Origin: a virus
IMG/VR virus record: IMGVR_UViG_3300012954_000009
Span: 38,474-102,473 of that record
Reading direction: 5' to 3' (one strand)
Length of the DNA: 64,000 nt
Positions 1-20,636 of this stretch are shown here, in pieces (the stretch's first letter is position 1; every line of letters starts with the position of its first letter). The translations under genes were made by a program, and so were the position numbers. A model generated the notes under the pieces. It ran no database searches. It was given only the letters and a program-made list of their open reading frames with translations, and was not told where the DNA came from.

Positions 1-2491
1 TTAAATCTTTTGATTGTTGTATAGTAAAAAGTCCACGGTATGTTTCTATAAATCTATTAAAGTTAAGAACATAACCAATATACTCTGGTTTACCAAAGTT
101 TGCAGGATCTTGTATATACTCAGAAAACTTTCTTGTTTGTTTTAAACCATCTCGTAGTAGTCTAGTATATAATGTACTTCTAGCTTTAGGGCCTTCTTCT
201 TTAGCAACAGCAATAGCTGCAAGTGTGTGTTGTATATTTTCTTTAGTTGCTTTAGCAGTCCTATCCATGAAAATGCTACTTTCTATTTTATCAATAGCAT
301 CCTCTTTTTTAATTAGTGCAATCTCATATGAATCTAATGCACCGCTTATTGTTGCATACTCTGTAAGACCGTTAGCATCTAATGTATCTTCTGACATCTG
401 ATCAACTGGATCTAGTATATCATCAGGTGTTATTCTTGCATCATCTGATAACTCATCTGCTGCATCTATTTGATCCTTGGCAACTGGGTCTACAAATGAT
501 GGTATTAACGTGTTTACCATGTTAATGTTTTGGCTGACAGGATGAGGCATCCAAGTGTCAAACTCAAAATCACCATTAAACTTTTGCTTCTTTCCTTTAC
601 CGGTTATATCAACCTTTATATGAAATGTAGAAGTAGAGAACTCACTCTGGTCAACTTCATAACCCATATTCTCTAGCATTCTTCTGTATAGATTTACTTG
701 GAGATTATGTTGTTGTCTTGTAGATAGTCTGTCTACACCTTTTTGTTTTAAGAAACTATCATTCTTGAGATCCCAACCTTCATCATACTCTTCATTATTT
801 CTAACAAAGTTTTTACTAGTCTTTAAATCTATAACTCTTAAAGCACCACTGCGTGTTACAATAACTAAATCAGCTGTACCAGCAATCCCGGTCTCTTTAT
901 CATAAAGAACAACTTGAGGTATTGCTATTGCACCATCTGTTGTAAGCATTCTTACATTAGCCTCCATAGTTTTGTAGGCTGCTTCTGCTTTAACAGGGTC
1001 TAAGAATTTAATATTATCTTTTATTTCGTCAAAAGTTTTGTCAGATACAATAGCATCTAATATCATATCAAACTCATTACCAATATCTAAGTTAAGCTGA
1101 TTCTCTGCTTGTTGCTTTGGAGTCATCTTACCTTTGATAACTTGAGTGGCTGACAAATAATCTTTACCGTTAACTATATCTAGGTATGTATGGTCTTTCT
1201 CATTTAGAACTACAAGCGTATCTGCACCTTCTTTTGCACTGGCAGATAGTGTATCAACCTCTTGATCAGAAGTCTGTGCTAAGTTAAATAACCTCTTTAT
1301 TACTTCTTCTTGTTTTGAGTTTACAGCTTGTCCTAAAGCATAATCTATAATGGATTGCTTCTCTGGAGTAAGATTATATCTAACCTTTGTATCAGCTACT
1401 CTTTCTAATTTAAACTCTATGTCTGAAGTATTAAGAAGTCTTGCAATATCAGATAGTTTGGCATTAGTAGTTAAAGATGATGCTTTAAATTGTAATGGAC
1501 GCCCTGTTAAATACTGACTAAAGTTTTTAATTATCTCAGAAAACCACTGTAAAAATTGTTTTATAACATCTTTGAATGATCTTGTTGGATTTGTTTCATA
1601 CTCATTATTAAAATGTCTAGACAGTGCTTGAGTAACAAGTTCTAGGTTTCTATGTCTTTGATTAAAACCTCTAGCGTCTGTATAGGAGTCTTCTATTTCT
1701 TGATTTAATACAGGAAAGTTTTGTTTAGCTTCTGCTAGTAATTTGTTAAACAATTCTGTATTATCTACAAGTAACCCATCTACAAATGGGTGTAGTATTT
1801 CTTCTATTGCTGTTTCATTGCTTACTCTTCCTTTTATTAAGACAGCATTGCCATTTACATAGAAAGATCTAATCTTATCAAAAGGCACCTTAGCTTTTTG
1901 TGATTCAGGTAAAGAATCATAGTACCGCTTTGCTTGAGCAACTGTGACAACCTCAACATTAATCTGCGGGAATATATTTGCTAAGTGTTGTACTAATTGT
2001 ACAGAGTGTGTAGATTTATTATTTGTTGTAGCATCAATTAGATCTTTAGGAGTAAATACATTTTGCTTAACTATTACTTCAAAAGCTTTTTCTGTTCTCC
2101 TAAATGTTACAGCTTCTTCAGGTATATTATTTATCCTTAAATATCTTTTAGTAAGAGTTAGATTCTTCTGTAATACTGATTCATTGTATGTCCAAGTGTT
2201 TTGATCCCATGTTGTTCTCTCTGAGTTATTAATATAGAACCTACCTTTGTACATGCTACCATAACCAAGCCTACTAAGATTACCTAATAAAGCATCACCA
2301 AACTCTCTTCTTTTCAAAGAAAACAAAGCTTGTTGATCTTTCTTAAGCTGCATTGCTTGTTGTAGTGTTGGCAACTCTTCTGATCTGTTTAGCTTCTGCC
2401 AAGTATTAATAACATTTTCTGTTTTAAGATCAGTTTTAAATTGTTGCTTTAATGCTTGAAACTCACTTGTATTTCTATTTATACACGCCAT
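1..2491 (-). CDS. PD-(D/E)XK nuclease-domain protein, partial (C-terminus beyond left edge)
   Basis: An open frame runs from an ATG at 2491 to the window edge with no stop, giving 830 visible residues. Residues about 535-605 carry the PD-(D/E)XK signature of the RecB/Cas4 type: GTADLV with D541, then a strand ending D555-L-K557, then Q598-V-N-L-Y602, which fits the QxxxY motif. This predicts metal-dependent DNA cleavage. The first 400 residues and the part after 620 match nothing I recognise. The ATG lies 2 nt after the stop of the RNA-polymerase polyprotein, so the two are probably co-transcribed and translationally coupled, and this protein may be part of the ejected cargo or act early on host DNA. 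The fold call rests on motif spacing alone. Being partial, it may hold further domains outside the window. Confidence 0.8.
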   Translation of the reverse strand, partial: MACINRNTSEFQALKQQFKTDLKTENVINTWQKLNRSEELPTLQQAMQLKKDQQALFSLKRREFGDALLGNLSRLGYGSMYKGRFYINNSERTTWDQNTWTYNESVLQKNLTLTKRYLRINNIPEEAVTFRRTEKAFEVIVKQNVFTPKDLIDATTNNKSTHSVQLVQHLANIFPQINVEVVTVAQAKRYYDSLPESQKAKVPFDKIRSFYVNGNAVLIKGRVSNETAIEEILHPFVDGLLVDNTELFNKLLAEAKQNFPVLNQEIEDSYTDARGFNQRHRNLELVTQALSRHFNNEYETNPTRSFKDVIKQFLQWFSEIIKNFSQYLTGRPLQFKASSLTTNAKLSDIARLLNTSDIEFKLERVADTKVRYNLTPEKQSIIDYALGQAVNSKQEEVIKRLFNLAQTSDQEVDTLSASAKEGADTLVVLNEKDHTYLDIVNGKDYLSATQVIKGKMTPKQQAENQLNLDIGNEFDMILDAIVSDKTFDEIKDNIKFLDPVKAEAAYKTMEANVRMLTTDGAIAIPQVVLYDKETGIAGTADLVIVTRSGALRVIDLKTSKNFVRNNEEYDEGWDLKNDSFLKQKGVDRLSTRQQHNLQVNLYRRMLENMGYEVDQSEFSTSTFHIKVDITGKGKKQKFNGDFEFDTWMPHPVSQNINMVNTLIPSFVDPVAKDQIDAADELSDDARITPDDILDPVDQMSEDTLDANGLTEYATISGALDSYEIALIKKEDAIDKIESSIFMDRTAKATKENIQHTLAAIAVAKEEGPKARSTLYTRLLRDGLKQTRKFSEYIQDPANFGKPEYIGYVLNFNRFIETYRGLFTIQQSKDL

Positions 2492-2493
2492 AC

Positions 2494-5400
2494 TTATATA
2501 TTATAACATTCTTTTAATTTGTCTAAGAACTCTTGCTCACTTGCATATGTACCTGTCTCATACTCATTTATAAAGTCCTCTAAGCTATTTATACCATTCT
2601 CTGCTAAGGTAGCTTTTTTCTTGCTATCTTGTTGTATATTATCATCCCAATATTCAGTAAGCTCAGGATTTGTAGTTTCATTTGTACTACTTGAAGTGTT
2701 ACCTAATAAAGCAGCTATTGCTTGATTATCATTTTGTATATCATCTTCTGTAACTTCTCTTTCTACAAGCTCAGCTTGTGGTACTTCACCAACTGTAGTA
2801 TTCTTACCATCATACTCTACTGGTGCACCTTGTGCAATTTTTTGTGCACTATCTGTTGGTCCATCACCAATATTAATCTTATCAATCTCATCTAGCACAT
2901 CTCCATAATTATCTGCAGTATCCTGACCAGTTGTATTACGTACATACTTTCTAACTTCTATCATAGTTGGTCTTTCACCAAACATAAACCCTATTGGATT
3001 TTGTGAATCTGATCCCATTGGCTCTACCTCAACATATTCAGCATAGTTTCCACTAACTAAGTTAGCTGCTGTTATAGGTTGTGGATTTACACTTTGTACT
3101 TTTGATAACTCAAAGTATCTATATCTTGGTTGATCCTGAGTTCCAACATTTACTTTAATTACATAAGGTAATAATGCTTCCATATAACTTCTATCCCCAG
3201 ACTTCTCAAGAGTAGTTGATATATTCTTTCTGGCTAGTGTATTCTCAGCATTACCACTCTTAGAATTACTAGGTTTTCTTACTGACAAGAAATCGTCTGA
3301 CTGAGTTATCCTTTGCCCTGGATATACATTAACTATTAACTTTGATGTCTCTGTTGTTTCATCTATGTATGCTACTTGTTTATTTGCATTTTGAGAACTC
3401 TTACTAACAGCCTTCTTGCCATCTGCAATATTATAACCAAACCTATTATTTAAACTATCCTTAATATACTTAAATACCTCTGGACTATTCTTCTGTAAAG
3501 CTTTTAGTTCTGACCTTGGTATTAAATACTTAGGGAACTTAACATTTTCATACTGACCTATTAAACTATCTAATGCATCCAGTTGAGCTTCAAAGTTTGC
3601 AACAAAAGTATCTAGCTCTTCATTTGTATAGTAGTTAGACTCAATATCAGCTAGTCCTTTCTTATATATAACTCCAAAACTATTACCATTGTCTCTAACA
3701 GAACGGTTGCCATCTTTTCCTAAAGCAGAAGCATTATCACCAAACACATACAATGTATTCTCATTAATACTTACAGTATGTGGTTTATAAGGTGAACTTT
3801 GGATTTCTATCTTTGTTGGATTAGGATTATATGTTGCAATATTATATGTGTTTCTTAAGTCTCTTCTATTACTAGCACTAGTTAAGTAACCCTTTAAGAA
3901 GTCTTCTACAAGATCATTATAGTTCATTCCAAATGTAGACTCAAAGAATCTATTACTACCATCTCTTAGTGCTGATTCTACATTATTTACTTGCTCTAAA
4001 TAAGTGTCATAAGTAAATGGTGTGACTGCATCAAGTAATGATTGATAGCCGTATCTAAAACCATCCTTAACCATCATGTAGTGTATAATTTTTACAGCAT
4101 CATTTCTGGTCTCTAGATTACCATACAATCTTGCAAATGATGATTGCAAGTTTACTTTTTGACTATCACTAATTCTATTAAAAGTATTTGCTGCTGCTTT
4201 ATCAATACCATCTTTATTTCCTTCTTGATTTGCATTCTCTAATATTACAAAACTGTCTAAGAAGAAATTATTATTATCTATACTTCTAAGTCTTTCTACT
4301 ACATCTGTAATTTTCTCACCCTCTAATTGTGGATATATTAAACTATTGCTCAATGATCCGGCTTTTACAGGATCATTATCCACTAATTTTTTATCATAAG
4401 CTTTAATGGTAAGGTATGCTAATATATCTATCCTAATGTTTTCCTTAACTTCATCAGTAAGCATTCTGCTGTTCATATTAGTCATAACCTTATTATAAAG
4501 ATCTTTGAACAGCGGTGTTTGAGTTAAGAATACTTTTGGTAATATCTTAGATTCAATCTCATTAAATATTTTTATGTATTGACCTTGCCATGTATTCTTA
4601 AACATAGGTCGTACATCAATCAATGGTTGCTTGGCAGCAATTCTTTTTTCTCTATAGACTTTGTATGCTTTATCAGATAAACCAATACCTAAGTCTTTTA
4701 GATCTTGCTTTCTAGAAGCTATATCTGTAACTGTTGCACCAAGACCATTAGTAAGATTCATAACAGAACTTAGTTTTCCAAGATAAGTCTTAATACTATG
4801 TGCTGTTTGAAATTGTTTCAGTGTTGAGTATTCTTTTATTGCTTGATCTCTTGTAAACTCATCATCTTTTACTTTCTTTGCTAACCCAGCTTTTGACATA
4901 CTAATCTTATAGTTAGCATCAATCTCATCTATAAGTAATGCATCTGTTACCTCTACCTCTGAAAGATCACCAAACTCTTCTTCAAGATTTGCAAGCCTTT
5001 CTCTCACAAGTGTTGCAATACCAGCATCAAATTGATCATCTTTATTTGTGGCTTGATAGTAAAGTTGTCTTAGTGATGGGTGGTTTATTAATAATATAGA
5101 TGTCTTGATAGGTACACCTAATGCTGTCATTGAAGCAACAGTTGCTAATGCATCTCTATTTAAACCTAACTTACCTGACAATCTTAACTTTCCGTTATCA
5201 GTCATTGCTGTAATAAGAGCAGATAAAACATATTGGTTTCTATAATTACCATTGCTATCTTGTGTTTCTGAAAAACTATTATATTCTTTACCTCCTAATT
5301 CAAGTTGTGTAGTTGTACGTTGTTTACCCGCTGTAATTTGCTCTATAGTAATACCATACTCCTGTAGCAAGTTCAAGTATAAGTTAGGTAATACTACAGC

Positions 5401-8400
5401 ACCAATAGATTTAGCTCCTGCTTTATTTGCTTCAAAGCTTAATAGTTGACCTAATGGGCTATCAACATCTATATCCTCATTATCTAGCATTTGCTTGAAG
5501 TAAGGAACTTCTGCTGCTAACTCCTGTAACAAGTCTTCAAGAGGCTGTGTAACTGCAGGTTGATAAGTAATAGGAACATCCTCACCAGGTGTATTAGTAA
5601 CATGCTCATTACCCATTAAGGTAGACTTATAATCAACAATCTCATTGCTTATTGCTTCTATATATGGTTCATGCCCTGTCTTTTCTTTATACTCTGTGTA
5701 TTGTTCAAATGTTATAGGTAATCCTAAAGCACTTAATGCTTTCATTGCATCCTCATTAAAACCTGCATCTGATCCTTGATCAAAGTCCACAGTAACTTCA
5801 GCACCGCTATTTCTAAATTTAAGTAATGCTTCATTTATACCAGTGCCTGGTTTTTTAACAGAGTTGTTTATTGCTCTTATATAATCTGAATACTTACCAT
5901 CTTCTGTCTTAGCTTTTCCATACTCAAAGAACTCACCATCTTCTTCATAAAAGTCTTTTGATTGTACATATACCTTATCAATATCAAAGTCAGCACCTGA
6001 TATCTCAATCAACTCTCTAGCAAACACTGCACTAGAACCATAGTATGTTGGCATAAAGTCAACCATTCTAATGTTTACTGTAGAGTGATTATCCTGTGAT
6101 GGTATTCTAACACCAAACATTTTACTTACAGCTTCTGGCATAGCTTTATCAGTGTCTTTGATAAGATTACCTACATCTGCATGATGCGCTGGCATAATAG
6201 ATTCTGTATATCTTTCTTGTTGATATTGACCTTGATCATTATAAACCTTCATGTTAGATCTTAAACGGTCTATTATAACAACACCTTCTGATCCTGCATT
6301 TTCTACAAGTCCTGCAAGACCATCAAGATTTTTATCATTACCTTCTTGGTATCCGCCTTCATCAATGTTTGCTACAATCTCTGGCTTTGATCCCATTCTT
6401 TCCCAAACATCTTCTCTTATAACCTCATGCTTATCTGGCATTCCGTTTTCATCTACTGAAAGAACTCTTCTATATATTCTTACACCATAGTCAGACACTA
6501 GAGCTAATGACATACCTGTAGTCTTTTCTGCAAGTACACCCTTAGAAAAGAATGAAAGGAATAACTCTTCAAACTTCTTAACTGTTTGCGGGTTATTTAA
6601 GTTATACTTTTGTTGTCCTGTTTCATCAAGTGAGAACATTTCAAGTGTATTACTTGTAGCATTAGATGCTTCTAAACTTGATTGTGCATACTTAAGATAT
6701 ATATAGAGATCTGGTTTGATTTCACCTTCAGCAATACTTTCTTTTAATAATTCATTTGCATATTCAATATCAAAATTAAATAAGGAGTTTCTTCTATTTA
6801 GGTACTTGAGAGTTACTCTATCACTAACAGCTTTATTATAGTTTTCTCTTATCTTACCAACAGTAGTCTTCTCACCATTTAAAATTACAGGAGTATTATC
6901 GTTCTGCTCAGATGTTACAAGAGTTTTAACCTGTGTAGGATCTGTAACTAAAAGCTTATTAGATGGATTTACTGTCTGTAGACCCATAAAGTTTGCATCA
7001 AGAACCATAGATTGGTCTTCTTTAAACGCATTTGTATTATCTAATTCTGATAGTGGATTAACATTCTCCTTCAGCATCTTAAGTGCTGATACAGGTGCAG
7101 CTAAGGCAATAGTTTCTTTACCTTTCTCAAACTCCTCCAACTTAACTCTTAAGTTATGTAGTCTTACTTTATTTGCTTTTGGTTCTGTAAATCCAGATTC
7201 TTTTGTTGATGTATATTCAGGAGTTAAAACAAAAGCTGACATCTTAACAAAAGTTTTACCATCAGCATAGACAAACTTCTTAGAGTTTATCATTTCACTT
7301 GCTTTAGCATAGCTTTCATTTGTCTGATCAGCATTTCCAACTAACTCTTCATATGCTATATCTTCTCCTTTTTCAATTCTATTTAATAAGTCTGCTTGCT
7401 TAGCACTTAGCTTACCAAGACCAAACCACATATATCTAAACGCCTTGGTTGTCATCCAAAGTTGTGCATCAGCATTATCAGTCTTACCATCATTAAATGT
7501 ATTATCTACACTTGGTTCTGTAAAAGCAAATAGATTCATCTTTTGCAGAGGATGATTGATACCATACTCTTCTGCTTTTATTATTGATGCAACACTATCG
7601 TATGCTGCATTCTGTGCCTTAGCTCTTTTGACCTCATCAGTAGGATCTTTAAGAGTCATAGCAACATCACCTAGTAATACTTTATTTAACTCAGAAGCAT
7701 TAATCCAGTTGTTAAAGAAAATCTGCCTTAAGTTGTAGTTAATATCATCTGTTAAATTTAACAACCTATTAGACAGTCTAACTTCTGGAGTTACTGATCC
7801 ATTTGCATTTTGCAATCCGTTTCTAATATATGTACTAAGATCTGATTCATTAGCAACAGAGTCTAGCTTTCTTCTAAAGTTGAGATACTCTTGCTCTAAT
7901 CTATCTCTTAAGAAGTTGTCAAATGCAGCTTGATCACCTATAGCATCTTCAAATGATATGTCTTCTCCATTTCTGTAAGCTTCATTAATCTTAGACTCTA
8001 GGTAAGTTTCATAGTTATTAATAACTTCTGATGCACCATCTGTATCTTCTGTAGCATTGTCTTCTGTTCTAACCACTTCATATAGGAACATTTCTTTTGT
8101 ACCCTTTAAGAACTGTCTCATGTCACCAGACTCAACCCAGTATTGTGCCTCACCTATACGTACAGGATTTGTGTGCGTATCTGTCTTTTCATTGCTAACA
8201 GCTGCACCAAGTAGATTAATTATTCTATCTCTGTTTTCTGAGTTAACTCTCGTCTTACCTAAACTCTTTATAGGGCCTTCAAAACTATTTGTTGCTTTAT
8301 CAAACTGCTGGATTAATACATTACGTACTTCGTTGTCAGCAGTAAACTTAATAACATTTTTTGCATTCTTTTCATTATATACAAATGCATTCTGATCACC

Positions 8401-11400
8401 CTCTTTAATTCTATTTACCTGTACTTCTGAAGTTTTAGCTCTTACAGTTTTAGTAAAAGTATCTGTTTCCTTTGCTTCTCTAAGTATATAACCAGTCTTT
8501 GTAAACTTAATATTTCTCTTCTTACCACTATTATAGTCTACTATGTTTCTTTCAGTTGCTGTATCAGGATTTGTTTCTTTTTTTATTCTTTCAAACTCTG
8601 CTTTAATTTGATTTTTAAATACATTAAGAGCTTGATCAGTCAATACTATTTCACCTTTCTTATTTTCAACAGCTTTGATGATTGGAAGTTTTGCCATATC
8701 ACCAGTATTAGAAGCCTCAATAACTCTTATCAATACAGGAGCTAAAGCTGTTTCTACAAGCTCACCTGTCACAGGATCTTCTGTAATAATTACTTGATCC
8801 ATTCTACCTGTATTATTTCTAAATAAATAAGTATATGAGTTAACTAAGTTTGTAATAAAATCCTTTGGAGTAAAGTCACCATACGTTGTACCTGTACTTC
8901 TTGATTCATCTACACCATCTTCTGTAATATCTATGTTACCTGTTTTACCACCTGATATTCTAGTAATCCCTATCATACCAGCAGAAGCCATGCTTATAAA
9001 CGCATCATTATTTAGTAACCAGTTATTAATTAAGAAGTCATCATCCTTTGTTTTAAGATCTTCTAACAGCTCAGGATTATTTAATGCAGCCATTCTTTTT
9101 AAATGATATGTAGGCTTTTGATGTGCGTATACTAAGTCACCGTTTGCATTTTTAAATACTGATGCACCAATTGTTTCATCAAATGGAGCGTTTGTCATAG
9201 ACATTTTTTTAAGCACTCCCTGCATACCTACCTCAGATGTACTAAATACATATACATTATTTTTTATGGTACCTTTTAAATTACTAAGGTCTTCTGAGTC
9301 TAATGGTTCTGCGTTTTGATAAGCATCTAATAGTAGTTTTTCATCTGCAGAAAGATTCTCAGGTTTTACTCTTTGTAGTATGCTATACTTAATAAATGTA
9401 GGACTTATAGTAATACCAACTGTTCTAGATAAGTTCTTTGATAGTCTTGTAAATAGATCATTACCGTTCTCATCTTCCTTATACATATTCTCTTTAGTCT
9501 TTTTACCTAAAGGTTTATTTGGTGAAACTGCACTCTGTAAAACATTTAGTACGCTAACAGCTTCATCTCTTGCTGTTTTATCTACTGATAAACTATTTCT
9601 GTAAAGGAAGCTATAAGCTTGACCCCACTTATCTATCTGTGAACTTGCATCATCTCTATTTGCTGCAGAATACGTTAATACTCTTCCGTTCTTATTTCTA
9701 TGTATAAAGATGTAGTCAACTCTAAAGTTTTCCATACCCTTGATAAGAGCATTAAAAAACAGAGGATTCTCAACACCTTCTGTCCATTGATTATTATTTA
9801 TTTTATCCTGAGTGATCCCAAGGTCATTAAAAAATCTATTAACAACAGCTCCTGTTTGTGGATTTGTTTGACCAAATACATATAACTGTTTTAGTATTTG
9901 TGTTGGATCTGTGGTATTCTTTACAGCTTTTAGCATACCATTATATACTTCTGCAAAATCTACAGGAACAATAAGTTTTTCTCCAGGTGTTAATTCTGTA
10001 TTTCCAAAGATGTCTTGCTGTTCTAGCGTAGTAGTCATTATATAACGTCTAAGCTTTGCAGATAAAGAATTAAATCCACCAATTAATGATGCATCTACAT
10101 CCCAATTATCAACGTTTCTTAAACCTTGACTATCTTCTTTTTGCTCTGCCACAAATATTTGATCTTCTAAATTTATATCTACAAGATTTAAAAACTTAGA
10201 TACAGAGTTTTTAATTTCTTCAGGGAAGTTTTCTAATGCATCACTATAGTCATTCATTAGTAGTAGCCTCTCGGTAGTTTGATTTTCATTAGCAGGACTA
10301 CCTACATCATATAGCTTTTTAAAATCTTTTAAGACATCATCTAATAACTCTTCTCTTGTTATATTTGCATTAGTATTAGCCTCTTCTCTTTGTATATAAA
10401 TAGCAGCCATGCTTCTGACCATTGCATTAGCATTGTCAGAATCTAAATATTGAAAACCAACCTTATCTCCTACCTCTATCTTTTCAAAAGGCACTAGAGC
10501 ATTTGCTTCTATTGTTAACCCCTGTAACGCAGCTTGTGTAAAGCGGTTTTCAACCGGTTGTGCTGACTTATACTTACCAGAATCAATATTTTTAAATAGC
10601 TCTGTAAGCTCATTCTTACTGTATACACCCAGTACAGATTTAATCCATTCAAGGATTCTAGTGAATAAAGACTTAACCTCACTACTTGTGTTAGTGTCTT
10701 TTGGGCTCGTCTTGAATTTCTCAAATTCATCTGCCAAATACTCTTCATAATACTCTTCTATCAAACGTGCTTCTGACATATTCTGATATGTGTCAGCAGA
10801 GTTTCTAAATTTATTTAATTCTTCTTTAAAGTTTTTACCCTCAGCTCTTAGCTTAGCTCTTACTTCTCTTCTTGCTATACCTAGATATTTAGTTATCTCT
10901 TGATCAGTAAGTAGCATTCTAAATACACCGTGGAATGCTTCATGATATTTAAATGGGCTTGTTGCTCCTGTATATATAGTACCTTTAACATTAAGACCAC
11001 CAGCTAAACTGTTAAGACCTAAAACAAATGCACCAACTCTAACACCACCTGCTTTCTGATTATTAGCTAATGTTCTTATATCTTGTACAGTAATATATGC
11101 TGGTAAGTTAGCAATAGCCCACGCTTCAAACTCATCTATACTTGTAACATCTGTAACTGATAGCTCAGGACTTATTACTTTATTAGCAATAAGATTATTT
11201 AATTCTGCATTTAATCTTTTTAATTCAGCATCTTGTTTAAGTGCTTTCTTTAAATTCTTTAATTGCTTTGCAGCTTTTAACTCTTCTGTAATCTGAGCTT
11301 TTCTAGCTTTAATATCTTCTTTTAACTTAGCTTTTTGAATTTCTAAATTAGCTTGTGGATTATTAGAAGCAAGTTCTTTAATCTTTTTGTTAACCTGTGC

Positions 11401-14400
11401 TGTTTTATCAGACATTATTGCAGTCTCTCTATCTGATAAAGTTTCTCCTGTCATTACTTTTCTTGCAATGTTCTCTATTCTTTCATTGCTAACTTTACCA
11501 TTATCAATAAAGGCTTGATACTCTTGATCAGAAATTTGTCCAATAGGTGCATCTTCTTCACTCATTTGAGCAACCATGTCTTCTAGAGTCCTAGTATTCT
11601 GTTTTTCTTGCTCAGTCTTTTTCTCTTCTACGTTAGCTGCATCTTCACTAGCTTGCATGCTAGCAGAATCTTGCGTAAGATCCAATCTTATATTGCTTCT
11701 AACTCTACCATCTAGTGTTGTAGTAGTAAGGTCAACCAAGTTTCTAACACCTTTATCTGAAGAAGTAACAGGTATTTTCATATCAAAGCTCTCCTTCATA
11801 TTCTTTGTGGTGACTTTGATACCTTTTTCTTTGGCTACTTCTGTTTCATTCAATAAATCAAATAGTTCTGCTACATCCCCATAGCTTTCTGACTCTGCTA
11901 TTTTTGCTACACCCTCTTGAGATATTACAATAGGATTTGGTTTACCTTTTAGTTTACCCTTAGTGTGTAGTATAATAGGCTTACCCGTCTCTTTATCTAT
12001 AATATTTGCTTCTATTCTACCTCCTGGATCTACTCTTAACTGTATCTTATAACCAGGAATTGTAGAGATAAAAATATCTTTAGTAAAGTCTTCATTCCAT
12101 TTCTTATTATAAACTAAGTCTTTTCTTTTTGACTGGCTTACATTTTCTGGATCAGATAAGTTTTCTTGTCTTGTTTTAACTGCTCTATCTATAAGTTGCT
12201 TAAACTTGTCATTGACAGCTGCTGGTGTAAGTTCTGCTGGGTTTAGTTGTGCTAAAGTATAAACACCCATAGGAGACTTTATGATTGCAACATATGCTCC
12301 CATATTTCTTGCTGTCTTATATAATCCTTGTGATGTTAAATCTTGTTTTATTTTTTCTACAACTGCTGCCTCTTCTTCAGCATCTTCTATATTAGTCTTA
12401 AAGTCTTCCCTTCTTGTTACTTTTGTTTTACCATTCTCATCTACATCAGTCTGGTATCTGTTATCTAGAATAACAATATTACCATCAACAGTATAGTAGT
12501 CTAATTCCGTTAGAGACTTAGGTGCATCAAAGCTAAATGATCCTTCATTATATGTAAATCCAAAACCAGTACCTAAGAAATCACTAAGTTTTACAGTAAC
12601 TGTGCTATTCTTACCTAACTTCTTTTCAACAAACTCTAAGAAGTTAGCTGATATAGTAAAGTTATCTCTAATTTTAGAAAGTGCATTTACTTGATTACCA
12701 AAGAATGTATTTTGCGCAGTATCTTTATCTATTGTTCTAGGATCAATAGCTTGACCTTGTTTATTGTAAATAACAACATTGTCATTTGGTACATATCCAA
12801 ATATACCACTTGCACTATCAGACGGTTTAATACCTTTTGATTTTAAAATACTATTTATTTTTTTAGCAACTTTTGGGTTTCCTATCTTAAGAGCAATAGT
12901 ATATTTCTCTGACTTTCTCTTTATATATGGGTTTGAAGATTTACCTTCATATGCATAGTTCTCTCCTATAACCCCTCCATTAGGATTTACAGTTATAACT
13001 AGTTCTATAGTAGCTCTTTCTTCTGGAGTAAGCTCAGTCATAATCACATCATATCTTCTCTGAGCTTCTTCTCTTGATTCTCCTTTGTTTTGATGAGCAT
13101 ATGTTTTAGTTGGTTCACTAATTTGTAATCTACTTACATCAGTTGGTACCGTGCTAAAGTCTAGTGTATCTATTATTGTATATGCATTAGCAAACTCACC
13201 CGGTTTGATTACTTTTGTAGCATCTTTTCTTTCTTGACCTTTTGTATCTACTTTATCAACAGGAAGCAAGGAAAGATTTCCAAACTTTTCTAGAGATGTA
13301 GGAGATGTAGTTACTATAAATTTGTTACCGTCTGCATCTTCTACTTCTGTACCATATGATAACATTATATCATTTCCGTTTACATCTTTATCAAATGCAA
13401 ACGTATCTGATGTAGGTACTTTTTCTGCTAAAGTATTTAAACCTTTTACTGCTGCCCCTACTTTGCTATATACTCCATTTGGTGTTAATTCAGCTGCTTG
13501 TAAAAGTTCTTCTGATACATCTTTATTATCAACAGTTCTAATTTGCCAGTACTTTGTGGCATCTCCTGAGTCTGGATCTATAGTAGAAAACTCTACAACA
13601 ACATAACCACCTCTTGGTTTTCCAATAACTTTACCACCATACTCTACTTCTTGAACACCGTCTCCTAAATCTTCTGCTTGTTCTACTGTATAGAAGTCAT
13701 TGTATGTCAATCCACCTGCCTCAAGAATATCTTTTACATCTGGATTTGTTTCTTGATTTACTAACCATGATGTAAAACCTTGATCAGTATTATAGGCTTC
13801 CATTAGATCTTTCTGTGATTTATACTCTTCTTTTAAACCACCTTTGTCATACCAATACTTTTTAAGAGCTTCATAAGCTTTTACTGCCAACACAGCTTCT
13901 TGTGAATTTAACCAAGCTGCTTGACTCTTAGCTTTCTTACCAAGAGATTGCTGATCTCTCTTATGCTTTCTATATAATTTATTTAGCAGTGCTTTAATTG
14001 TAGGATTCTGTGTAGTATCAGTACCAAACGTTTGACTTTCTGGAGCATTTATTTCTGCATTATCTAACACACTATCAATCTTATCCTCTGACTCTTTAGT
14101 TTCTTTAGCTCTTGTTTCTGCAGCTTGTGGATCTTGTTGTACATCTTCTGTATCAGATATGTCCATACTATCATTATAATTATCAATGGCTGCACGGACT
14201 TTTAGATATAAATCTTTATCCATTTTAGGATCAACAACACCTTGTTCATTAAAGAATAATTGTAGGTATCTTGCATCTCCTGTTTTTAGGAACATCTCAG
14301 CTTGATCAGCATCAGGGTATACACCTAAATCATTTAATTTATTGAGTAATAAATTTGCTTCAATCTTGTTAATATACTTCTTTACTCTCTTTTCAAAATC

Positions 14401-17325
14401 AGTCTTGTTCTTTTTAAATAGCTCTTTGTTGATAGCATACTGTCTCGCAACAATTTTATCTAATTGTTCAGGATTGCTTAAATATTGTATTGCTTTATCA
14501 TATGTTTTTGCTCTACCTTTTAGTGCTTTGTAGTCTACAATTTTCTTCAATACCTCATCTATTCTTGCATTATCTACAAACCCATCTTTACTCTCTGCTA
14601 GGAACTGGACATAGTTTTGAAATACACTTCTTACTTTACCTATCTTTCTTCTATCAAAAGAACCATCTTTAGTAAGATTCTTTGGATCATTTAATATTTT
14701 TCTAATAGCATCTAAACGTTTTGCTTTGTCTACTAGTTTTTTCTTCTGTTCTTTATTTCCTTCTATGTCATCTAGAACTGCAGCTTCAGTCATTAAAGTC
14801 TGAATCTCTTTTGTAAGAGTGTCCTTATCTAATAACACTGTTAAATCAGAAGCCTCTAACTTTGATAAGATAGGATCTGCAGCTAGTTCATTATATATTT
14901 TATTTGATCTTTCAAGTGCTCTGTTGAAACCATCTTCAGTAAACATTTGCAAGAACCTAGCATGTTCAAATGCTATTTCTTTTAATGCCTCATCATTATA
15001 CTCTCTTGTTCCTTTTTCAAACTTACTTCTATCAAAAGGATTTACATACTTATCTTTATTTCTATTATATCTATCTTCATAAGTATCTATCTGACCAAGC
15101 ATGTCTGTTATCCTTTCTCTAAGCTTACCTGATTTAATTTCTTTTTTAGATGCAGGAAATGCTTCTGATAGTTCTTGATCTGTCAAGTTTAAAAAGTCTT
15201 GAAGTTGGTTTCTAAATAAACCTGCTGTTCCATTTTGGAATATGGTGTGATACTGATGAAACTTACCAAAGTCTTTTGCATCTGTAAAACCAAATTGATC
15301 TTGGTCATATAGATTTTTCTTCATTTCATTTGCAACTTCTTTTTGCACCATGAAGTTCATCTTCTGTGGATCAAATAATGCGCTAGGATCTTCTGCTTGT
15401 TTATTCCATGCTTCATTATGTGTGTCTACAAGAGACTTAATAAAATTTTCTCTCTTCTGTTTTATATCAGCCATACCTTTAGGATCAGTAACCCTTTGGT
15501 ACACATAAGGTAAAGCTTGGAAATATAGCTTTTGCGGTCCTTGCACAATACCACCCATCAAGAAACCAGACATAAATGTTTCAAAACCTTGTGCACTAAA
15601 CTGACTACCAACTGCTGATGCAACAACATTACTATGTAGATCAATACCTCCTTGCGTTGGATCATTCAATACTGCAGAATAGTAGTCTTTAGTTCCTTTT
15701 GATATAGCTTCTTGAGCAACTTCTTGAATACCCTCCGCAAGATTTTGTGAAAAGTATCTTAGACTGGCACCAGCCGCCATAGACAGTGATCCTTTTACAC
15801 CTGCAGCTTTTAATCTATTAAAATAACCTTTGATTCCCGTTCCTGCATCTTTAAATACATTCTTTGCAATTTTACCATCAGCACCAATTGTCTTAGTTCC
15901 TTGTATAATTCTTCTACCAAATCCCGTTATTCTATCATTCATTAATCTACCAAGTGACTTATTAAAACCACCCATTGCATTACCTAAGACAAACTGATTT
16001 GATAAGTATATAAGAGGAGCATTCCTCATGATTGTTCCAAATGCTGCTTTCTCTGCATTCTCAGCAATACCTTCCATTTGTTCAGGTGATATATTCTCAT
16101 TACCACTCTTGGCTCTTTCTATAAGCATACCATTAGATATCTGCTGTTGGTACACCATACCCCCTTCAAGTTTAGACTCAGCCATAGCAAGGTTTAGTGA
16201 TCTTGCATCTCTATAGAATCCTCCCATAAATTTACTGGCCTTAGCCATATTGGTAAGATTCTGAGCACCATTCTTAGCTGTATGTAAACCTTTAACAGCA
16301 GCCATAGTCTCAGGAACAAACAATGTACCTATTGCACCCCACTCACCAGCTTTAGTTGCTTTCCAAAAATCTCTTGCTTTATCAACATTATTTATCGTCT
16401 TAAGCATATTCCTTGTAGCCTTAGCCATTCTAGTAATAGCAAAACTATTTGCAATAGCTTTTCCAATTCTACCAAAATTCCACGCTGTTCTTGCAGCTGC
16501 CGGTCCTCCTGCAGCACCACCTGTAGCTAATGTTGCACCTGCTAATAATAATTCTTCTACTGCAATAGATGATATAATACCTACAGTATATCCACTATTT
16601 AAAAGCATGTTATTTGCAAAGCCACCAAAACCACCTCTAGAAGACATACCTATAGCCATTGCATCCTCAAACTCTCCAGCTGTTTTAAGATCTGGTGCAC
16701 TAAAATAAGGGTCTGCATCAAATAAGTCACCTACAGATCTATATACACTTGTAAATCCAGAACCTACAAGTCTTCCAAATTGACCCCACATTCTAGACAT
16801 ATCATCATATATATCTGAATTAGCATTATAAAATTCTTCATTATTTGCATATGGATGAAAACCTAATTCAGCAAACTTAGGATGCTCGTAATATCTATCA
16901 AAACCAGATGCTTTTCTACTAGCATATATAGGATCTTCTATAAAAGGTTTTTCTGGACCTAAATCAACTCTGCCTGGATTGTCTATTAAGTTCTGTAGAT
17001 TACGCATAACACCCTCTTCAGTACTTATATCAGCGGGAAGTTGTTGTAATCTTGGATTGTACTGACCTACACTATTTTCAGGATAAGGTGTATTCATATT
17101 AGCCAATGAAGTTGGTGCATAACTATTTATGACCGGCTTATAAGAGTCCAGCATTTTTACATAGTCAGCATCTAAGCTTGGATCAAACTCTTCTGTATTA
17201 GGTCCTTCCCACCACTGATCTGTAGGTATAAACTCAAATCTATCAGTAGGAACCGATGCAGGTACTGTACTAGCACCTAGCCCTGCTGATTCAGCATTTA
17301 TTTTTGGTTCATTTGGTAAGCTCAT
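2494..17325 (-). CDS. Giant virion RNA polymerase polyprotein (crAss-like, DFDID motif)
   Basis: This 4943-residue protein is the largest in the window. Residues 3779-3783 read DFDID within SGADFDIDKVYVQ, the metal-chelating motif of the single-chain virion RNA polymerases of crAss-like phages such as Cellulophaga phage phi14:2, which are ejected into the cell to transcribe early genes. The polymerase part probably spans about 2400-4300. Upstream, a zincin-like site H2128-E-A-F-H2132 is followed by EYLADE near 2195-2200, which would supply the third zinc ligand. Residues about 245-285 are hydrophobic and Gly/Ala-rich, a possible membrane-active segment. A domain starting YVFGDN at 4526, with later G/N-rich loops, resembles macro-like phage domains. 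The first 2000 residues are otherwise unassigned. It is more than twice my recollection of the phi14:2 enzyme (about 2200 residues), suggesting a fusion or polyprotein. Start chosen at the first ATG, 5 nt after the upstream gene. Confidence 0.88.
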   Translation of the reverse strand: MSLPNEPKINAESAGLGASTVPASVPTDRFEFIPTDQWWEGPNTEEFDPSLDADYVKMLDSYKPVINSYAPTSLANMNTPYPENSVGQYNPRLQQLPADISTEEGVMRNLQNLIDNPGRVDLGPEKPFIEDPIYASRKASGFDRYYEHPKFAELGFHPYANNEEFYNANSDIYDDMSRMWGQFGRLVGSGFTSVYRSVGDLFDADPYFSAPDLKTAGEFEDAMAIGMSSRGGFGGFANNMLLNSGYTVGIISSIAVEELLLAGATLATGGAAGGPAAARTAWNFGRIGKAIANSFAITRMAKATRNMLKTINNVDKARDFWKATKAGEWGAIGTLFVPETMAAVKGLHTAKNGAQNLTNMAKASKFMGGFYRDARSLNLAMAESKLEGGMVYQQQISNGMLIERAKSGNENISPEQMEGIAENAEKAAFGTIMRNAPLIYLSNQFVLGNAMGGFNKSLGRLMNDRITGFGRRIIQGTKTIGADGKIAKNVFKDAGTGIKGYFNRLKAAGVKGSLSMAAGASLRYFSQNLAEGIQEVAQEAISKGTKDYYSAVLNDPTQGGIDLHSNVVASAVGSQFSAQGFETFMSGFLMGGIVQGPQKLYFQALPYVYQRVTDPKGMADIKQKRENFIKSLVDTHNEAWNKQAEDPSALFDPQKMNFMVQKEVANEMKKNLYDQDQFGFTDAKDFGKFHQYHTIFQNGTAGLFRNQLQDFLNLTDQELSEAFPASKKEIKSGKLRERITDMLGQIDTYEDRYNRNKDKYVNPFDRSKFEKGTREYNDEALKEIAFEHARFLQMFTEDGFNRALERSNKIYNELAADPILSKLEASDLTVLLDKDTLTKEIQTLMTEAAVLDDIEGNKEQKKKLVDKAKRLDAIRKILNDPKNLTKDGSFDRRKIGKVRSVFQNYVQFLAESKDGFVDNARIDEVLKKIVDYKALKGRAKTYDKAIQYLSNPEQLDKIVARQYAINKELFKKNKTDFEKRVKKYINKIEANLLLNKLNDLGVYPDADQAEMFLKTGDARYLQLFFNEQGVVDPKMDKDLYLKVRAAIDNYNDSMDISDTEDVQQDPQAAETRAKETKESEDKIDSVLDNAEINAPESQTFGTDTTQNPTIKALLNKLYRKHKRDQQSLGKKAKSQAAWLNSQEAVLAVKAYEALKKYWYDKGGLKEEYKSQKDLMEAYNTDQGFTSWLVNQETNPDVKDILEAGGLTYNDFYTVEQAEDLGDGVQEVEYGGKVIGKPRGGYVVVEFSTIDPDSGDATKYWQIRTVDNKDVSEELLQAAELTPNGVYSKVGAAVKGLNTLAEKVPTSDTFAFDKDVNGNDIMLSYGTEVEDADGNKFIVTTSPTSLEKFGNLSLLPVDKVDTKGQERKDATKVIKPGEFANAYTIIDTLDFSTVPTDVSRLQISEPTKTYAHQNKGESREEAQRRYDVIMTELTPEERATIELVITVNPNGGVIGENYAYEGKSSNPYIKRKSEKYTIALKIGNPKVAKKINSILKSKGIKPSDSASGIFGYVPNDNVVIYNKQGQAIDPRTIDKDTAQNTFFGNQVNALSKIRDNFTISANFLEFVEKKLGKNSTVTVKLSDFLGTGFGFTYNEGSFSFDAPKSLTELDYYTVDGNIVILDNRYQTDVDENGKTKVTRREDFKTNIEDAEEEAAVVEKIKQDLTSQGLYKTARNMGAYVAIIKSPMGVYTLAQLNPAELTPAAVNDKFKQLIDRAVKTRQENLSDPENVSQSKRKDLVYNKKWNEDFTKDIFISTIPGYKIQLRVDPGGRIEANIIDKETGKPIILHTKGKLKGKPNPIVISQEGVAKIAESESYGDVAELFDLLNETEVAKEKGIKVTTKNMKESFDMKIPVTSSDKGVRNLVDLTTTTLDGRVRSNIRLDLTQDSASMQASEDAANVEEKKTEQEKQNTRTLEDMVAQMSEEDAPIGQISDQEYQAFIDNGKVSNERIENIARKVMTGETLSDRETAIMSDKTAQVNKKIKELASNNPQANLEIQKAKLKEDIKARKAQITEELKAAKQLKNLKKALKQDAELKRLNAELNNLIANKVISPELSVTDVTSIDEFEAWAIANLPAYITVQDIRTLANNQKAGGVRVGAFVLGLNSLAGGLNVKGTIYTGATSPFKYHEAFHGVFRMLLTDQEITKYLGIARREVRAKLRAEGKNFKEELNKFRNSADTYQNMSEARLIEEYYEEYLADEFEKFKTSPKDTNTSSEVKSLFTRILEWIKSVLGVYSKNELTELFKNIDSGKYKSAQPVENRFTQAALQGLTIEANALVPFEKIEVGDKVGFQYLDSDNANAMVRSMAAIYIQREEANTNANITREELLDDVLKDFKKLYDVGSPANENQTTERLLLMNDYSDALENFPEEIKNSVSKFLNLVDINLEDQIFVAEQKEDSQGLRNVDNWDVDASLIGGFNSLSAKLRRYIMTTTLEQQDIFGNTELTPGEKLIVPVDFAEVYNGMLKAVKNTTDPTQILKQLYVFGQTNPQTGAVVNRFFNDLGITQDKINNNQWTEGVENPLFFNALIKGMENFRVDYIFIHRNKNGRVLTYSAANRDDASSQIDKWGQAYSFLYRNSLSVDKTARDEAVSVLNVLQSAVSPNKPLGKKTKENMYKEDENGNDLFTRLSKNLSRTVGITISPTFIKYSILQRVKPENLSADEKLLLDAYQNAEPLDSEDLSNLKGTIKNNVYVFSTSEVGMQGVLKKMSMTNAPFDETIGASVFKNANGDLVYAHQKPTYHLKRMAALNNPELLEDLKTKDDDFLINNWLLNNDAFISMASAGMIGITRISGGKTGNIDITEDGVDESRSTGTTYGDFTPKDFITNLVNSYTYLFRNNTGRMDQVIITEDPVTGELVETALAPVLIRVIEASNTGDMAKLPIIKAVENKKGEIVLTDQALNVFKNQIKAEFERIKKETNPDTATERNIVDYNSGKKRNIKFTKTGYILREAKETDTFTKTVRAKTSEVQVNRIKEGDQNAFVYNEKNAKNVIKFTADNEVRNVLIQQFDKATNSFEGPIKSLGKTRVNSENRDRIINLLGAAVSNEKTDTHTNPVRIGEAQYWVESGDMRQFLKGTKEMFLYEVVRTEDNATEDTDGASEVINNYETYLESKINEAYRNGEDISFEDAIGDQAAFDNFLRDRLEQEYLNFRRKLDSVANESDLSTYIRNGLQNANGSVTPEVRLSNRLLNLTDDINYNLRQIFFNNWINASELNKVLLGDVAMTLKDPTDEVKRAKAQNAAYDSVASIIKAEEYGINHPLQKMNLFAFTEPSVDNTFNDGKTDNADAQLWMTTKAFRYMWFGLGKLSAKQADLLNRIEKGEDIAYEELVGNADQTNESYAKASEMINSKKFVYADGKTFVKMSAFVLTPEYTSTKESGFTEPKANKVRLHNLRVKLEEFEKGKETIALAAPVSALKMLKENVNPLSELDNTNAFKEDQSMVLDANFMGLQTVNPSNKLLVTDPTQVKTLVTSEQNDNTPVILNGEKTTVGKIRENYNKAVSDRVTLKYLNRRNSLFNFDIEYANELLKESIAEGEIKPDLYIYLKYAQSSLEASNATSNTLEMFSLDETGQQKYNLNNPQTVKKFEELFLSFFSKGVLAEKTTGMSLALVSDYGVRIYRRVLSVDENGMPDKHEVIREDVWERMGSKPEIVANIDEGGYQEGNDKNLDGLAGLVENAGSEGVVIIDRLRSNMKVYNDQGQYQQERYTESIMPAHHADVGNLIKDTDKAMPEAVSKMFGVRIPSQDNHSTVNIRMVDFMPTYYGSSAVFARELIEISGADFDIDKVYVQSKDFYEEDGEFFEYGKAKTEDGKYSDYIRAINNSVKKPGTGINEALLKFRNSGAEVTVDFDQGSDAGFNEDAMKALSALGLPITFEQYTEYKEKTGHEPYIEAISNEIVDYKSTLMGNEHVTNTPGEDVPITYQPAVTQPLEDLLQELAAEVPYFKQMLDNEDIDVDSPLGQLLSFEANKAGAKSIGAVVLPNLYLNLLQEYGITIEQITAGKQRTTTQLELGGKEYNSFSETQDSNGNYRNQYVLSALITAMTDNGKLRLSGKLGLNRDALATVASMTALGVPIKTSILLINHPSLRQLYYQATNKDDQFDAGIATLVRERLANLEEEFGDLSEVEVTDALLIDEIDANYKISMSKAGLAKKVKDDEFTRDQAIKEYSTLKQFQTAHSIKTYLGKLSSVMNLTNGLGATVTDIASRKQDLKDLGIGLSDKAYKVYREKRIAAKQPLIDVRPMFKNTWQGQYIKIFNEIESKILPKVFLTQTPLFKDLYNKVMTNMNSRMLTDEVKENIRIDILAYLTIKAYDKKLVDNDPVKAGSLSNSLIYPQLEGEKITDVVERLRSIDNNNFFLDSFVILENANQEGNKDGIDKAAANTFNRISDSQKVNLQSSFARLYGNLETRNDAVKIIHYMMVKDGFRYGYQSLLDAVTPFTYDTYLEQVNNVESALRDGSNRFFESTFGMNYNDLVEDFLKGYLTSASNRRDLRNTYNIATYNPNPTKIEIQSSPYKPHTVSINENTLYVFGDNASALGKDGNRSVRDNGNSFGVIYKKGLADIESNYYTNEELDTFVANFEAQLDALDSLIGQYENVKFPKYLIPRSELKALQKNSPEVFKYIKDSLNNRFGYNIADGKKAVSKSSQNANKQVAYIDETTETSKLIVNVYPGQRITQSDDFLSVRKPSNSKSGNAENTLARKNISTTLEKSGDRSYMEALLPYVIKVNVGTQDQPRYRYFELSKVQSVNPQPITAANLVSGNYAEYVEVEPMGSDSQNPIGFMFGERPTMIEVRKYVRNTTGQDTADNYGDVLDEIDKINIGDGPTDSAQKIAQGAPVEYDGKNTTVGEVPQAELVEREVTEDDIQNDNQAIAALLGNTSSSTNETTNPELTEYWDDNIQQDSKKKATLAENGINSLEDFINEYETGTYASEQEFLDKLKECYNI

Positions 17326-20300: not shown

Positions 20301-20636
20301 AGTTCTAACCATATCACCTACAATTATATCTTCTTCAAAGAAAGGTTTAAATACAGCCTTAGCTGCATCAACATTTTGGATTAATGATAAATCCATTCCT
20401 GATATTTTTTGTAGTTTATCAGCAAGACCAGCTGTGTACTGATCTCTCATTGTCTGTGTGTCTTCTCTAGATAGTGGTGCATAGACAATCTTACTATACA
20501 TATCATTTAATTGCTGATAGTTAGTATTATATCTATTTGTTTTTATATCTAATACACTAGACAAAAACTTGTAGTCCGGAGTAAATGGTTTAAACTCCGG
20601 CATATATGATTTAGAACCTGGTATATATGTTGCCAT
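17331..20636 (-). CDS. Large cargo-type virion protein (1101 aa), function unknown
   Basis: I do not recognise a catalytic domain. The protein begins MATYIPGSKSYMPEFKPF, is rich in Gln, Asn, Tyr and Asp, has no signal peptide or clear transmembrane helix, and looks largely helical in its first 450 residues, with many Q/N/A-rich segments. It sits directly upstream of the RNA-polymerase polyprotein (5 nt gap) and after two other very large proteins. In crAss-like phages the genes between the tail muzzle and the RNA polymerase encode cargo proteins stored in the capsid and tail and ejected with the DNA, so position suggests that role. An uncharacterised internal virion protein is the safest description. 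Confidence 0.75.
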   Translation of the reverse strand: MATYIPGSKSYMPEFKPFTPDYKFLSSVLDIKTNRYNTNYQQLNDMYSKIVYAPLSREDTQTMRDQYTAGLADKLQKISGMDLSLIQNVDAAKAVFKPFFEEDIIVGDMVRTKAYQNERAYANRLMNDPDKDRRQMWWQTGLQAMDYQMQDFVNAPKDDALNMAIPKYIPNANLYQMSLDVLKESGLNVKMDELSPDGQWIITRENGDLVTGPALEMLQRTLTGDPRVQQAYFTQSYVDGRNTAQKMIDSGAVNSVQEGQRQWALKTINQFTTQAGERKINQQTELNQSTNSNASWDLFKKQKGIVAGSVQERQMRQQFEVYQSLKAGIETSNNIISEGVMPTTSSSTQDLLNRAYNMQMQFNIKDDMIAAARSFGKMNASTTIKMENPEYGRQRKFQYSKALEAIRQQNRIDLEVLKASLDPKNQPGVLSNSSLNAKPGGPGNITFVDDGEGKYDIVKYNLNKVAEFDNVNTEQKIKAITTALRSMQPGVTDNLYTLTIDGEEKKLPIGGVNSTDGQNFYQLLNTSADGVFKYKGDIDRIYAEFNSILVPNSENQNALAEKYPHLAYDNTAVDADPSDAVARAKRIDYLKLKSQFENVNQYEAKLIEGNQRLHNHYFNQYNLMAAAGDLFEGSSEVKEFTNPDKGTLNKDGSGALPLDFLFTNLGDGNHHLKTKEEFVNEYVTLARQKKLTDGNRGWWSQHTWFGPDSGHDENYIGERNVYYGSGSIKDGTKILAGTEKYFMTDEAKKDASMLYDLMYGALNKSQGSIIAPDITEVLTKGGTPEQVTVSGNPTDDFTTFNFTQFMRGREYLGSVGDLIINPQYDIDIDPAMINQDANGASIVMDIITQFNETPTQKMTIQPGDMGRNTRADFNAVSNTIAMDLFRSYIRDMKSWSQNPDQPQTGRPQATITYNNVYGNPEVGDKTHAAYVINFDQEWVKKTLPLIKAGKTTGTNPAMISNADLASYSTLTFAFDKEMDISIRRDGMYNYSYVQDKINTSDNKQYFNSVTNGGSIQVFQDVNGAHMAQITYKQYKPSEEGNFVDIATPAFNLNEWIASTYKGGTVESHLDNAVKYFEITLEDKMNSNNTLYDADAKQNGTK

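What the first reader, a model, noticed from the sequence alone, without database searches (positions are those of the whole stretch)
2494..17325. 4943-residue RNA polymerase polyprotein
The DFDID motif at residues 3779-3783 marks a crAss-type virion RNA polymerase, but the gene is 14.8 kb long. By my memory the phi14:2 enzyme is about 2200 residues. The extra ~2000 N-terminal residues carry a zincin-like site and a hydrophobic Gly/Ala-rich segment, and a macro-like domain sits near the C-terminus. This looks like several cargo proteins fused into one ejected chain.
Basis: partly seen in the sequence, partly recalled or inferred. Interest (0 to 1): 0.8.

Follow-up and report, generated by a model that had tools for sequence, protein, structure and literature searches.

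The report
Phage polymerase chains capped with cysteine
This giant gene is a crAss-like phage polymerase fused to a second injected protein, and across its relatives every place where this injected chain is broken into separate proteins carries one cysteine on each facing end, while unbroken joints and free outer ends carry none, which suggests the pieces are re-linked by disulfide bonds for injection.

Summary
The 4943-residue ORF is real (minus strand, no stops; same single ORF in about 50 related contigs). Residues 3250-4300 are a crAss-type virion RNA polymerase: profile match to Steigviridae RNAP (E 3e-18), and the AlphaFold model matches the phi14:2 vRNAP structure 6VR4 (E 2e-26). The N-terminal ~2300 residues are the homologue of crAss001 gp47, a separate virion cargo protein there. 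So two cargo proteins are fused; Suoliviridae have the same layout. The fusion itself is not new.

What is new to me is a strict cysteine rule. The cargo chain runs gp47-gp50-gp49 and is cut differently in different phages. Wherever it is cut, both facing ends carry a cysteine within about 10 residues of the terminus: 158 of 158 in two sets, 137 of 144 in a third. Outer ends have none (0 of 130). Fused joints lose the pair; a 5646-residue all-fused chain has zero cysteines. New breaks beside inserted genes, mostly homing endonucleases, carry new pairs (8 of 8 ends). The window fits: one cysteine, 4th from the C-terminus, facing cysteine 3 of the next gene.

Best reading: disulfides replace missing peptide bonds in the ejected chain. 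The pattern is shown; the bond is inferred.

The parts
2494..17325 (-). Giant virion RNA polymerase gene, 4943 aa: gp47-like module fused to gp50-like (RNAP) module
10636..17325 (-). gp47-like cargo module, residues 1 to ~2230, with no cysteine
   Evidence: profile match of its zincin-motif end to Steigviridae gp47, 99.3%, E 1.8e-19
16492..16605 (-). Hydrophobic Gly/Ala-rich segment, residues 241-278; possible membrane segment
   Evidence: hydropathy; conserved in relatives
10930..10944 (-). HEAFH motif, residues 2128-2132 (zincin-like; fold unconfirmed)
   Evidence: invariant in the 52 rows of A5; no PDB fold match
10504..10635 (-). Fused 47/50 joint: low-confidence linker, residues ~2231-2274, with no cysteine; in phages where 47 and 50 are separate both ends here carry a cysteine
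   Evidence: AlphaFold pLDDT 30s
4426..7578 (-). RNA polymerase core, residues 3250-4300
   Evidence: AlphaFold pLDDT 87, pTM 0.89; Foldseek to 6vr4_A E 2.2e-26; hhalign to Steigviridae RNAP E 3.1e-18
5977..5991 (-). DFDID catalytic metal-binding motif, residues 3779-3783
   Evidence: invariant in the 56 rows of A4
3457..3780 (-). DUF7831 domain, residues 4516-4623; an accessory insert absent or reduced in several relatives
   Evidence: Pfam E 3.4e-13
2506..2508 (-). Only cysteine of the giant protein (residue 4940, 4th from the C-terminus): cysteine cap at the 50/49 break
2..2491 (-). Next gene, gp49-like, PD-(D/E)XK-nuclease-like; 1881 aa in all, continues outside the window to genome position 35319
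2483..2485 (-). Only cysteine of the gp49-like protein (residue 3): partner cap at the 50/49 break
17331..20636 (-). Upstream putative cargo protein, 1101 aa, zero cysteines
20648..23404 (-). Upstream putative cargo protein, 918 aa, zero cysteines
23407..27273 (-). Upstream putative cargo or tail protein, 1288 aa, zero cysteines

Best explanation
[quoted passage not shown] The functional cargo is one linear chain of three modules, gp47-gp50-gp49; in this phage modules 47 and 50 are one 4943-aa polypeptide and 49 is a separate 1881-aa polypeptide. SHOWN: in the layouts compared, each end that faces a break carries a cysteine near the terminus, unbroken joints and the two outer ends carry none, and the rest of the chain is poor in or free of cysteine. 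INFERRED: in the virion the two facing cysteines form a disulfide that stands in for the missing peptide bond, so the separate polypeptides leave the capsid through the tail as one continuous chain, gp47 end first, and are released (or stay docked and refold) in the reducing cytoplasm, where the polymerase transcribes early phage genes. A cysteine-poor body would avoid wrong pairing and disulfide trapping on the way through the envelope. Breaks in the gene, including those at inserted homing-endonuclease genes, are thus tolerated because the pieces are rejoined at the protein level.
For: RNAP identity. Fusion. Cysteine rule: 22 GenBank genomes of Steigviridae, Suoliviridae, Intestiviridae, Crevaviridae and unclassified kin, 55/55 facing ends with Cys, 0/43 free ends; environmental clade 103/103 facing and 0/87 free; a third contig set 137/144 facing within 10 residues. 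Body: 58 distinct giants, 264,062 residues, 1 Cys, against about 1% in 127 other proteins of these phages, in which Cys occurs at residues 2-5 in 0.8% and in the last five in 8%. Fully fused 5646-aa chain, zero Cys. New breaks with new pairs: L016, L235 (two breaks, three pieces), L222; 8/8 ends; in L235 the pieces align to one intact homologue, L207, whose only cysteines are at residue 3 and in its last ~250 residues. In crAss001 gp47 lies on the other strand from gp50/gp49, so no DNA-level or translational-coupling effect explains the 47/50 pair. Other virion proteins of crAss001 are joined by inter-chain disulfides in the cryo-EM structure (PMC10172136). N4 vRNAP, one 3500-aa ejected chain, has no Cys.
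Against: No disulfide between cargo chains has been observed; the RNAP cargo is not resolved in the crAss001 cryo-EM maps (PMC10172136). Intestiviridae-like chains carry up to 26 internal cysteines, so a cysteine-free body is not universal. Real or partial exceptions: L156, and L126 where a YkuD-domain ORF is inserted; Cys at -16 to -50 in L164, L167, L179, L182. Some Intestiviridae gp45-like proteins also have a C-terminal Cys without an evident partner. phi14:2 gp66 was reported active on its own (own knowledge of Drobysheva et al. 2021; text not available here), so linkage is not needed for catalysis.
Confidence: 0.66

Rival explanations
1. The terminal cysteines dock the chain ends to each other without a covalent bond, for example by sharing a metal ion or as part of an interface that guides reassembly after threading.
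For: Facing ends are the ones marked, and fusion removes the need. The cytoplasm where assembly begins is reducing.
Against: Only one cysteine per end and no conserved second ligand seen in the printed termini. Positions are loose (3-8 from the N-terminus, 1-9 from the C-terminus, sometimes further), which suits a flexible tether better than a metal site.
Confidence: 0.12
2. Chain ends are joined by a true ligation or trans-splicing that uses the cysteines as nucleophiles, giving one polypeptide in the virion.
For: Cysteine is the usual nucleophile in such reactions; fused and split layouts are interchangeable in evolution.
Against: No intein-like halves were recognised at the ends; the N-side cysteine is at residue 3 or later, not residue 1; gp47, gp49 and gp50 are treated as separate proteins in crAss001 virions (PMC10172136).
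Confidence: 0.05
3. Each terminal cysteine binds something else, such as the portal, capsid, DNA or a membrane, and is simply a feature of chain ends.
For: Some gp45-like proteins have a C-terminal cysteine with no obvious partner.
Against: The outer ends of gp47 and gp49 never have one (0/130); marking follows breaks, including new breaks inside gp49 and gp47.
Confidence: 0.1
4. The giant is an ordinary long crAss RNAP gene and the cysteine pattern is a by-product of cysteine avoidance in ejected proteins plus shared ancestry.
For: Cysteine avoidance is real and also seen in N4. Giant crAss RNAPs are known (PMC10136315, PMC7886860).
Against: Avoidance predicts no cysteine at the ends. New pairs arise at new breaks. 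The layout changed several times on the tree (10 changes in all; at least 3 forced for layout 47+50|49) and the cysteines changed with it.
Confidence: 0.05

Closest known systems
Cellulophaga phage phi14:2 virion RNA polymerase gp66 (PDB 6VR4), Steigviridae
   Same: RNAP core fold, DFDID motif, place between gp47-like and gp49-like genes; it also has terminal cysteines (3 and -2), facing gp67 Cys -1 and gp65 Cys 3
   Different: 2180 aa; the gp47-position protein (gp67) is separate there; core sequence too divergent for a sequence-only PDB hit
crAss001 gp47 / gp50 / gp49 (Kehishuvirus primarius)
   Same: Same three modules, all found in the virion by mass spectrometry (PMC10172136); terminal cysteines at both breaks
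   Different: Three proteins on two strands; here 47 and 50 are one chain
Suoliviridae transcription block (cr115_1, cr114_1, cr53_1)
   Same: Same layout, 47+50 fused then 49, with the same cysteine pair
   Different: TAG read as an amino acid, more internal cysteines, distant sequence
p-crAssphage gp45 and gp44 (Carjivirus communis)
   Same: Same modules; fusion of RNAP with the next subunit and the zincin protease are annotated
   Different: Joint 50/49 is fused and joint 47/50 is broken: the mirror-image layout, with the cysteine pair at 47/50
N4 virion RNA polymerase (Schitoviridae)
   Same: Giant ejected RNAP, cysteine-free; has a HExxH motif (PMC12633501)
   Different: RNAP domain is T7-like single-subunit; one chain with no terminal cysteines

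Membership tests
crAss-type virion RNA polymerase (phi14:2 gp66 family) | DFDxD catalytic motif in a conserved context | tested here: met
   DFDID at 3779, aligned to DFDVD of Steigviridae RNAPs, hhalign 99.0%, E 3.1e-18
crAss-type virion RNA polymerase (phi14:2 gp66 family) | Fold of 6VR4 | tested here: met
   AlphaFold model, Foldseek E 2.2e-26, probability 1.00, TM 0.63 by query
crAss-type virion RNA polymerase (phi14:2 gp66 family) | Two double-psi beta-barrels in one chain | tested here: inconclusive
   Whole-core alignment to 6VR4 spans 1149 columns, but the barrels were not inspected one by one
crAss-type virion RNA polymerase (phi14:2 gp66 family) | gp47-50-49 gene block | tested here: met
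   gp47 homology of the N-terminal part; nuclease-like gp49-position gene follows
crAss-type virion RNA polymerase (phi14:2 gp66 family) | Packaged in the virion and transcribes early genes | not testable with these tools
   uncultured virus
Crassvirales | Related portal, capsid and terminase genes | tested here: inconclusive
   Portal hits many crAss-like phages over most of its length at 22-27% identity, but the best hit is Leptolyngbya phage Lbo-JY46 at 34%; PHROG portal, major head protein and TerL; no tree of these genes was made
Zincin metalloprotease | HExxH motif, conserved | tested here: met
   HEAFH invariant in the 52 rows of A5, with conserved E and A/D residues downstream
Zincin metalloprotease | Zincin fold | tested here: inconclusive
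   Model pLDDT 70 for 1951-2650, no PDB match; no Pfam peptidase above cut-off
Macro domain | Match to a macro-domain family | tested here: not met
   Pfam returns DUF7831 only
N4-like single-subunit vRNAP | T7-like RNAP domain | tested here: not met
   Core matches 6VR4, not a T7-type enzyme, in the listed hits

The most novel reading that the evidence does not exclude
Crassvirales mend broken giant genes at the protein level: wherever a packaged RNA-polymerase chain is split, by gene rearrangement or by an inserted gene such as a homing endonuclease, selection puts a cysteine on each raw end so that a disulfide replaces the lost peptide bond during packaging and ejection. This would be a new kind of split-gene repair, neither intron nor intein, and a general rule for how multi-chain cargo is threaded through a phage tail.
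Probability: 0.62. Interest if true: 0.95.

Novelty: new variant of a known kind. Interest (0 to 1): 0.85.

Why it matters
How giant multi-chain polymerases pass through a narrow phage tail and find each other again in the host is open. If separate chains are disulfide-linked end to end, the cargo is one thread, which gives ejection an order and keeps the subunits together. The rule is testable with gel and mass-spectrometry experiments on cultured crAss phages, it corrects several start-codon annotations, and it suggests how these phages tolerate insertions in essential genes.

Tried and rejected
Sequence-only searches of the PDB with the protein and with the core profile found nothing. PHROGs and Pfam gave only DUF7831 for the giant. 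tblastn of the N-terminal 2400 residues found no phage record. Fold search of the zincin region gave no match. Considered and rejected: sequencing error joining genes (the layout recurs in dozens of contigs); chance clustering of cysteines; nucleotide signals at gene overlaps (47 and 50 lie on opposite strands in crAss001, and many Intestiviridae-like contigs have gaps of roughly 50-160 bases); group I or II introns at the new splits (no Rfam hit in L016, L235, L222, L126). Apparent exceptions cr110, crAss002, bajarodcaudo and L171 are start-codon calls; L115 and L138 look like frameshifts. The core profile found no RNAP in csAssE-Sib or Lbo-JY46, so epsilon-type phages were not tested. Literature: no held paper found that mentions the pattern, but the phi14:2 vRNAP paper is not in the library.

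Full report
OBSERVATION. The ORF is on the minus strand, 2494-17325, 4943 aa, no internal stop. DFDID is at 3779 and HEAFH at 2128. The window is bases 38474-102473 of a 102,473-base virus record. Complete relatives in viral contigs have the same single ORF of about 4490-5170 aa with both motifs in the same order, so it is not an assembly error.

WHAT IT IS. tblastn of residues 2400-4300 hits crAss-like RNA polymerases including crAss001. Profile-profile alignment of the core with four Steigviridae-type RNAPs gives 99.0%, E 3.1e-18, with DFDID on DFDVD. AlphaFold of residues 3250-4300 (pLDDT 87, pTM 0.89) matches one solved structure strongly, 6vr4_A, the phi14:2 virion RNA polymerase (E 2.2e-26). 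The C-terminal part of the N-terminal region aligns with the C-terminal region of Steigviridae gp47 (99.3%, E 1.8e-19), and distances fit: HEAFH is at 2128 here and 2157 in crAss001 gp47, and DFDxD lies about 1500 residues after the joint in both. So residues 1 to ~2250 are gp47 and ~2280-4943 are gp50; the joint is a low-confidence linker in the second model (residues 2231-2274). In crAss001 both, and gp49, are virion proteins by mass spectrometry (PMC10172136). The gene after the giant (1881 aa) holds the gp49 place and has a PD-(D/E)XK-like stretch. The layout 47+50|49 is shared with Suoliviridae; Intestiviridae and Crevaviridae have 47|50+49; most Steigviridae have 47|50|49. Giant RNAPs and the p-crAss fusion are already described (PMC10136315, PMC7886860).

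THE CYSTEINE RULE. The giant has one cysteine in 4943 residues, 4th from the end; the next protein has one in 1881, at residue 3. In 58 distinct giants, 264,062 body residues hold one cysteine, while 127 other proteins of these phages average 1%. In crAss001 gp47 ends ...RCNS, gp50 begins MSKRC and ends ...ICGANTLYEL, gp49 begins MAKKC; in phi14:2 gp67 ends in C, gp66 has C3 and C-2, gp65 has C3. Where 50 and 49 are fused, the pair is only at 47/50; where 47 and 50 are fused, only at 50/49. Tally: GenBank 55/55 facing ends and 0/43 free ends; environmental clade 103/103 and 0/87. Two disrupted giants, L115 and L126, were set aside in the environmental tally: in L115 the true C-terminus, with its cysteine, is in an overlapping frame; L126 is discussed under limits. 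Three GenBank starts had to be moved to the methionine 2-4 residues before the cysteine. A third set gives 137/144: two misses are one frameshift (L138), one is a start call (L171), three have the cysteine at -16 to -23, one (L156) is a real exception.

NATURAL EXPERIMENTS. (1) All fused: L153 is one 5646-aa ORF with HExxH and DFDID and no cysteine. L154, incomplete at its 5' end, also has none. (2) Break inside gp47: L163, L166, L177, L183, L185 have a separate first piece ending with a cysteine at -1 to -4 and a second piece starting with one at 3-4. For most of these the first piece was placed by gene order; only the L183 piece aligned with known sequence of the 47+50 giants. (3) Breaks inside gp49: in L016 a GIY-YIG gene separates a 400-aa piece ending KKCS from a piece starting MSC. 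L235 has two GIY-YIG genes and three pieces, MFC...QCS, MSC...RVC, MAC...; the pieces align to residues 1-231, 215-280 and 460-1688 of the unbroken L207 protein, whose cysteines are only at residue 3 and near its own C-terminal end. L222 shows another break, MSC...VQC facing MAC. That is 8 of 8 new ends; with the background rates (0.8% N-terminal, 8% in the last five) the chance is of order 1e-13 if ends were independent. L016's break is seen in one contig only. No intron family was found at these places. On a tree of the RNAP core the layouts need about 10 changes in all and at least 3 for 47+50|49; two truncated rows, L129 and L134, were labelled 47|50|49 there and are probably 47|50+49, so the count is approximate.

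MECHANISM. Shown: the pattern above. Supported by literature: inter-chain disulfides exist in the crAss001 tail and portal vertex (PMC10172136), and cargo must partly unfold to pass constrictions under 50 Angstrom (same paper). Inferred: the facing cysteines pair, making one thread of the three modules, ejected gp47 end first; reduction in the host releases them. N4 vRNAP, a single ejected chain from another lineage, has no cysteine, nor do its neighbouring virion proteins gp51 and gp52, which fits the view that cysteine is avoided in ejected chains except where it does the joining.

LIMITS. No chemistry was tested. Internal cysteines are common in Intestiviridae-like chains. L126 and L156 do not fit fully: an ORF is inserted at the 50/49 break and the giant has an extended C-terminus without a terminal cysteine. 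Epsilon and zeta groups were not tested. The open-access library lacks the phi14:2 polymerase paper, so prior notice of the pattern cannot be excluded.

Noticed in passing
L036, L038, L040, L030 (gp45-like proteins): Some Intestiviridae cargo-1 (gp45-like) proteins have a lone cysteine near the C-terminus (-2, -8, -8, -11) with no evident partner.
   Followed up: no
L016 16750-17436; L235 6609-7274 and 8056-8700: GIY-YIG homing-endonuclease genes sit exactly at breaks in gp49, and the downstream pieces begin with a shared motif of the form MxCxxxYxxxxY.
   Followed up: partly
L222 5171-5674; L126 15183-17030: A ferritin-like gene and a YkuD L,D-transpeptidase-domain ORF are inserted at the 50/49 break.
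   Followed up: partly
L127 (phage N4): N4 vRNAP (3500 aa) and the neighbouring virion proteins gp51 and gp52 contain no cysteine at all.
   Followed up: yes
window 27319-32010: 1563-aa protein with a C-terminal SLT transglycosylase domain, probably a tail lysin.
   Followed up: no
window 59593-62364: Portal protein is closest to that of Leptolyngbya phage Lbo-JY46 (34%), nearer than to named crAss phages, although the core profile found no RNAP in that phage.
   Followed up: partly
GenBank MT774386, MN917146, PQ006092: Start codons of RNAP or gp49 genes look misannotated; an in-frame methionine lies 2-4 residues before the conserved cysteine.
   Followed up: yes
several crAss genomes (L030, L035, L036, L044, L045): Thioredoxin-like genes are annotated not far from the RNAP block; possibly relevant to thiol chemistry.
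   Followed up: no
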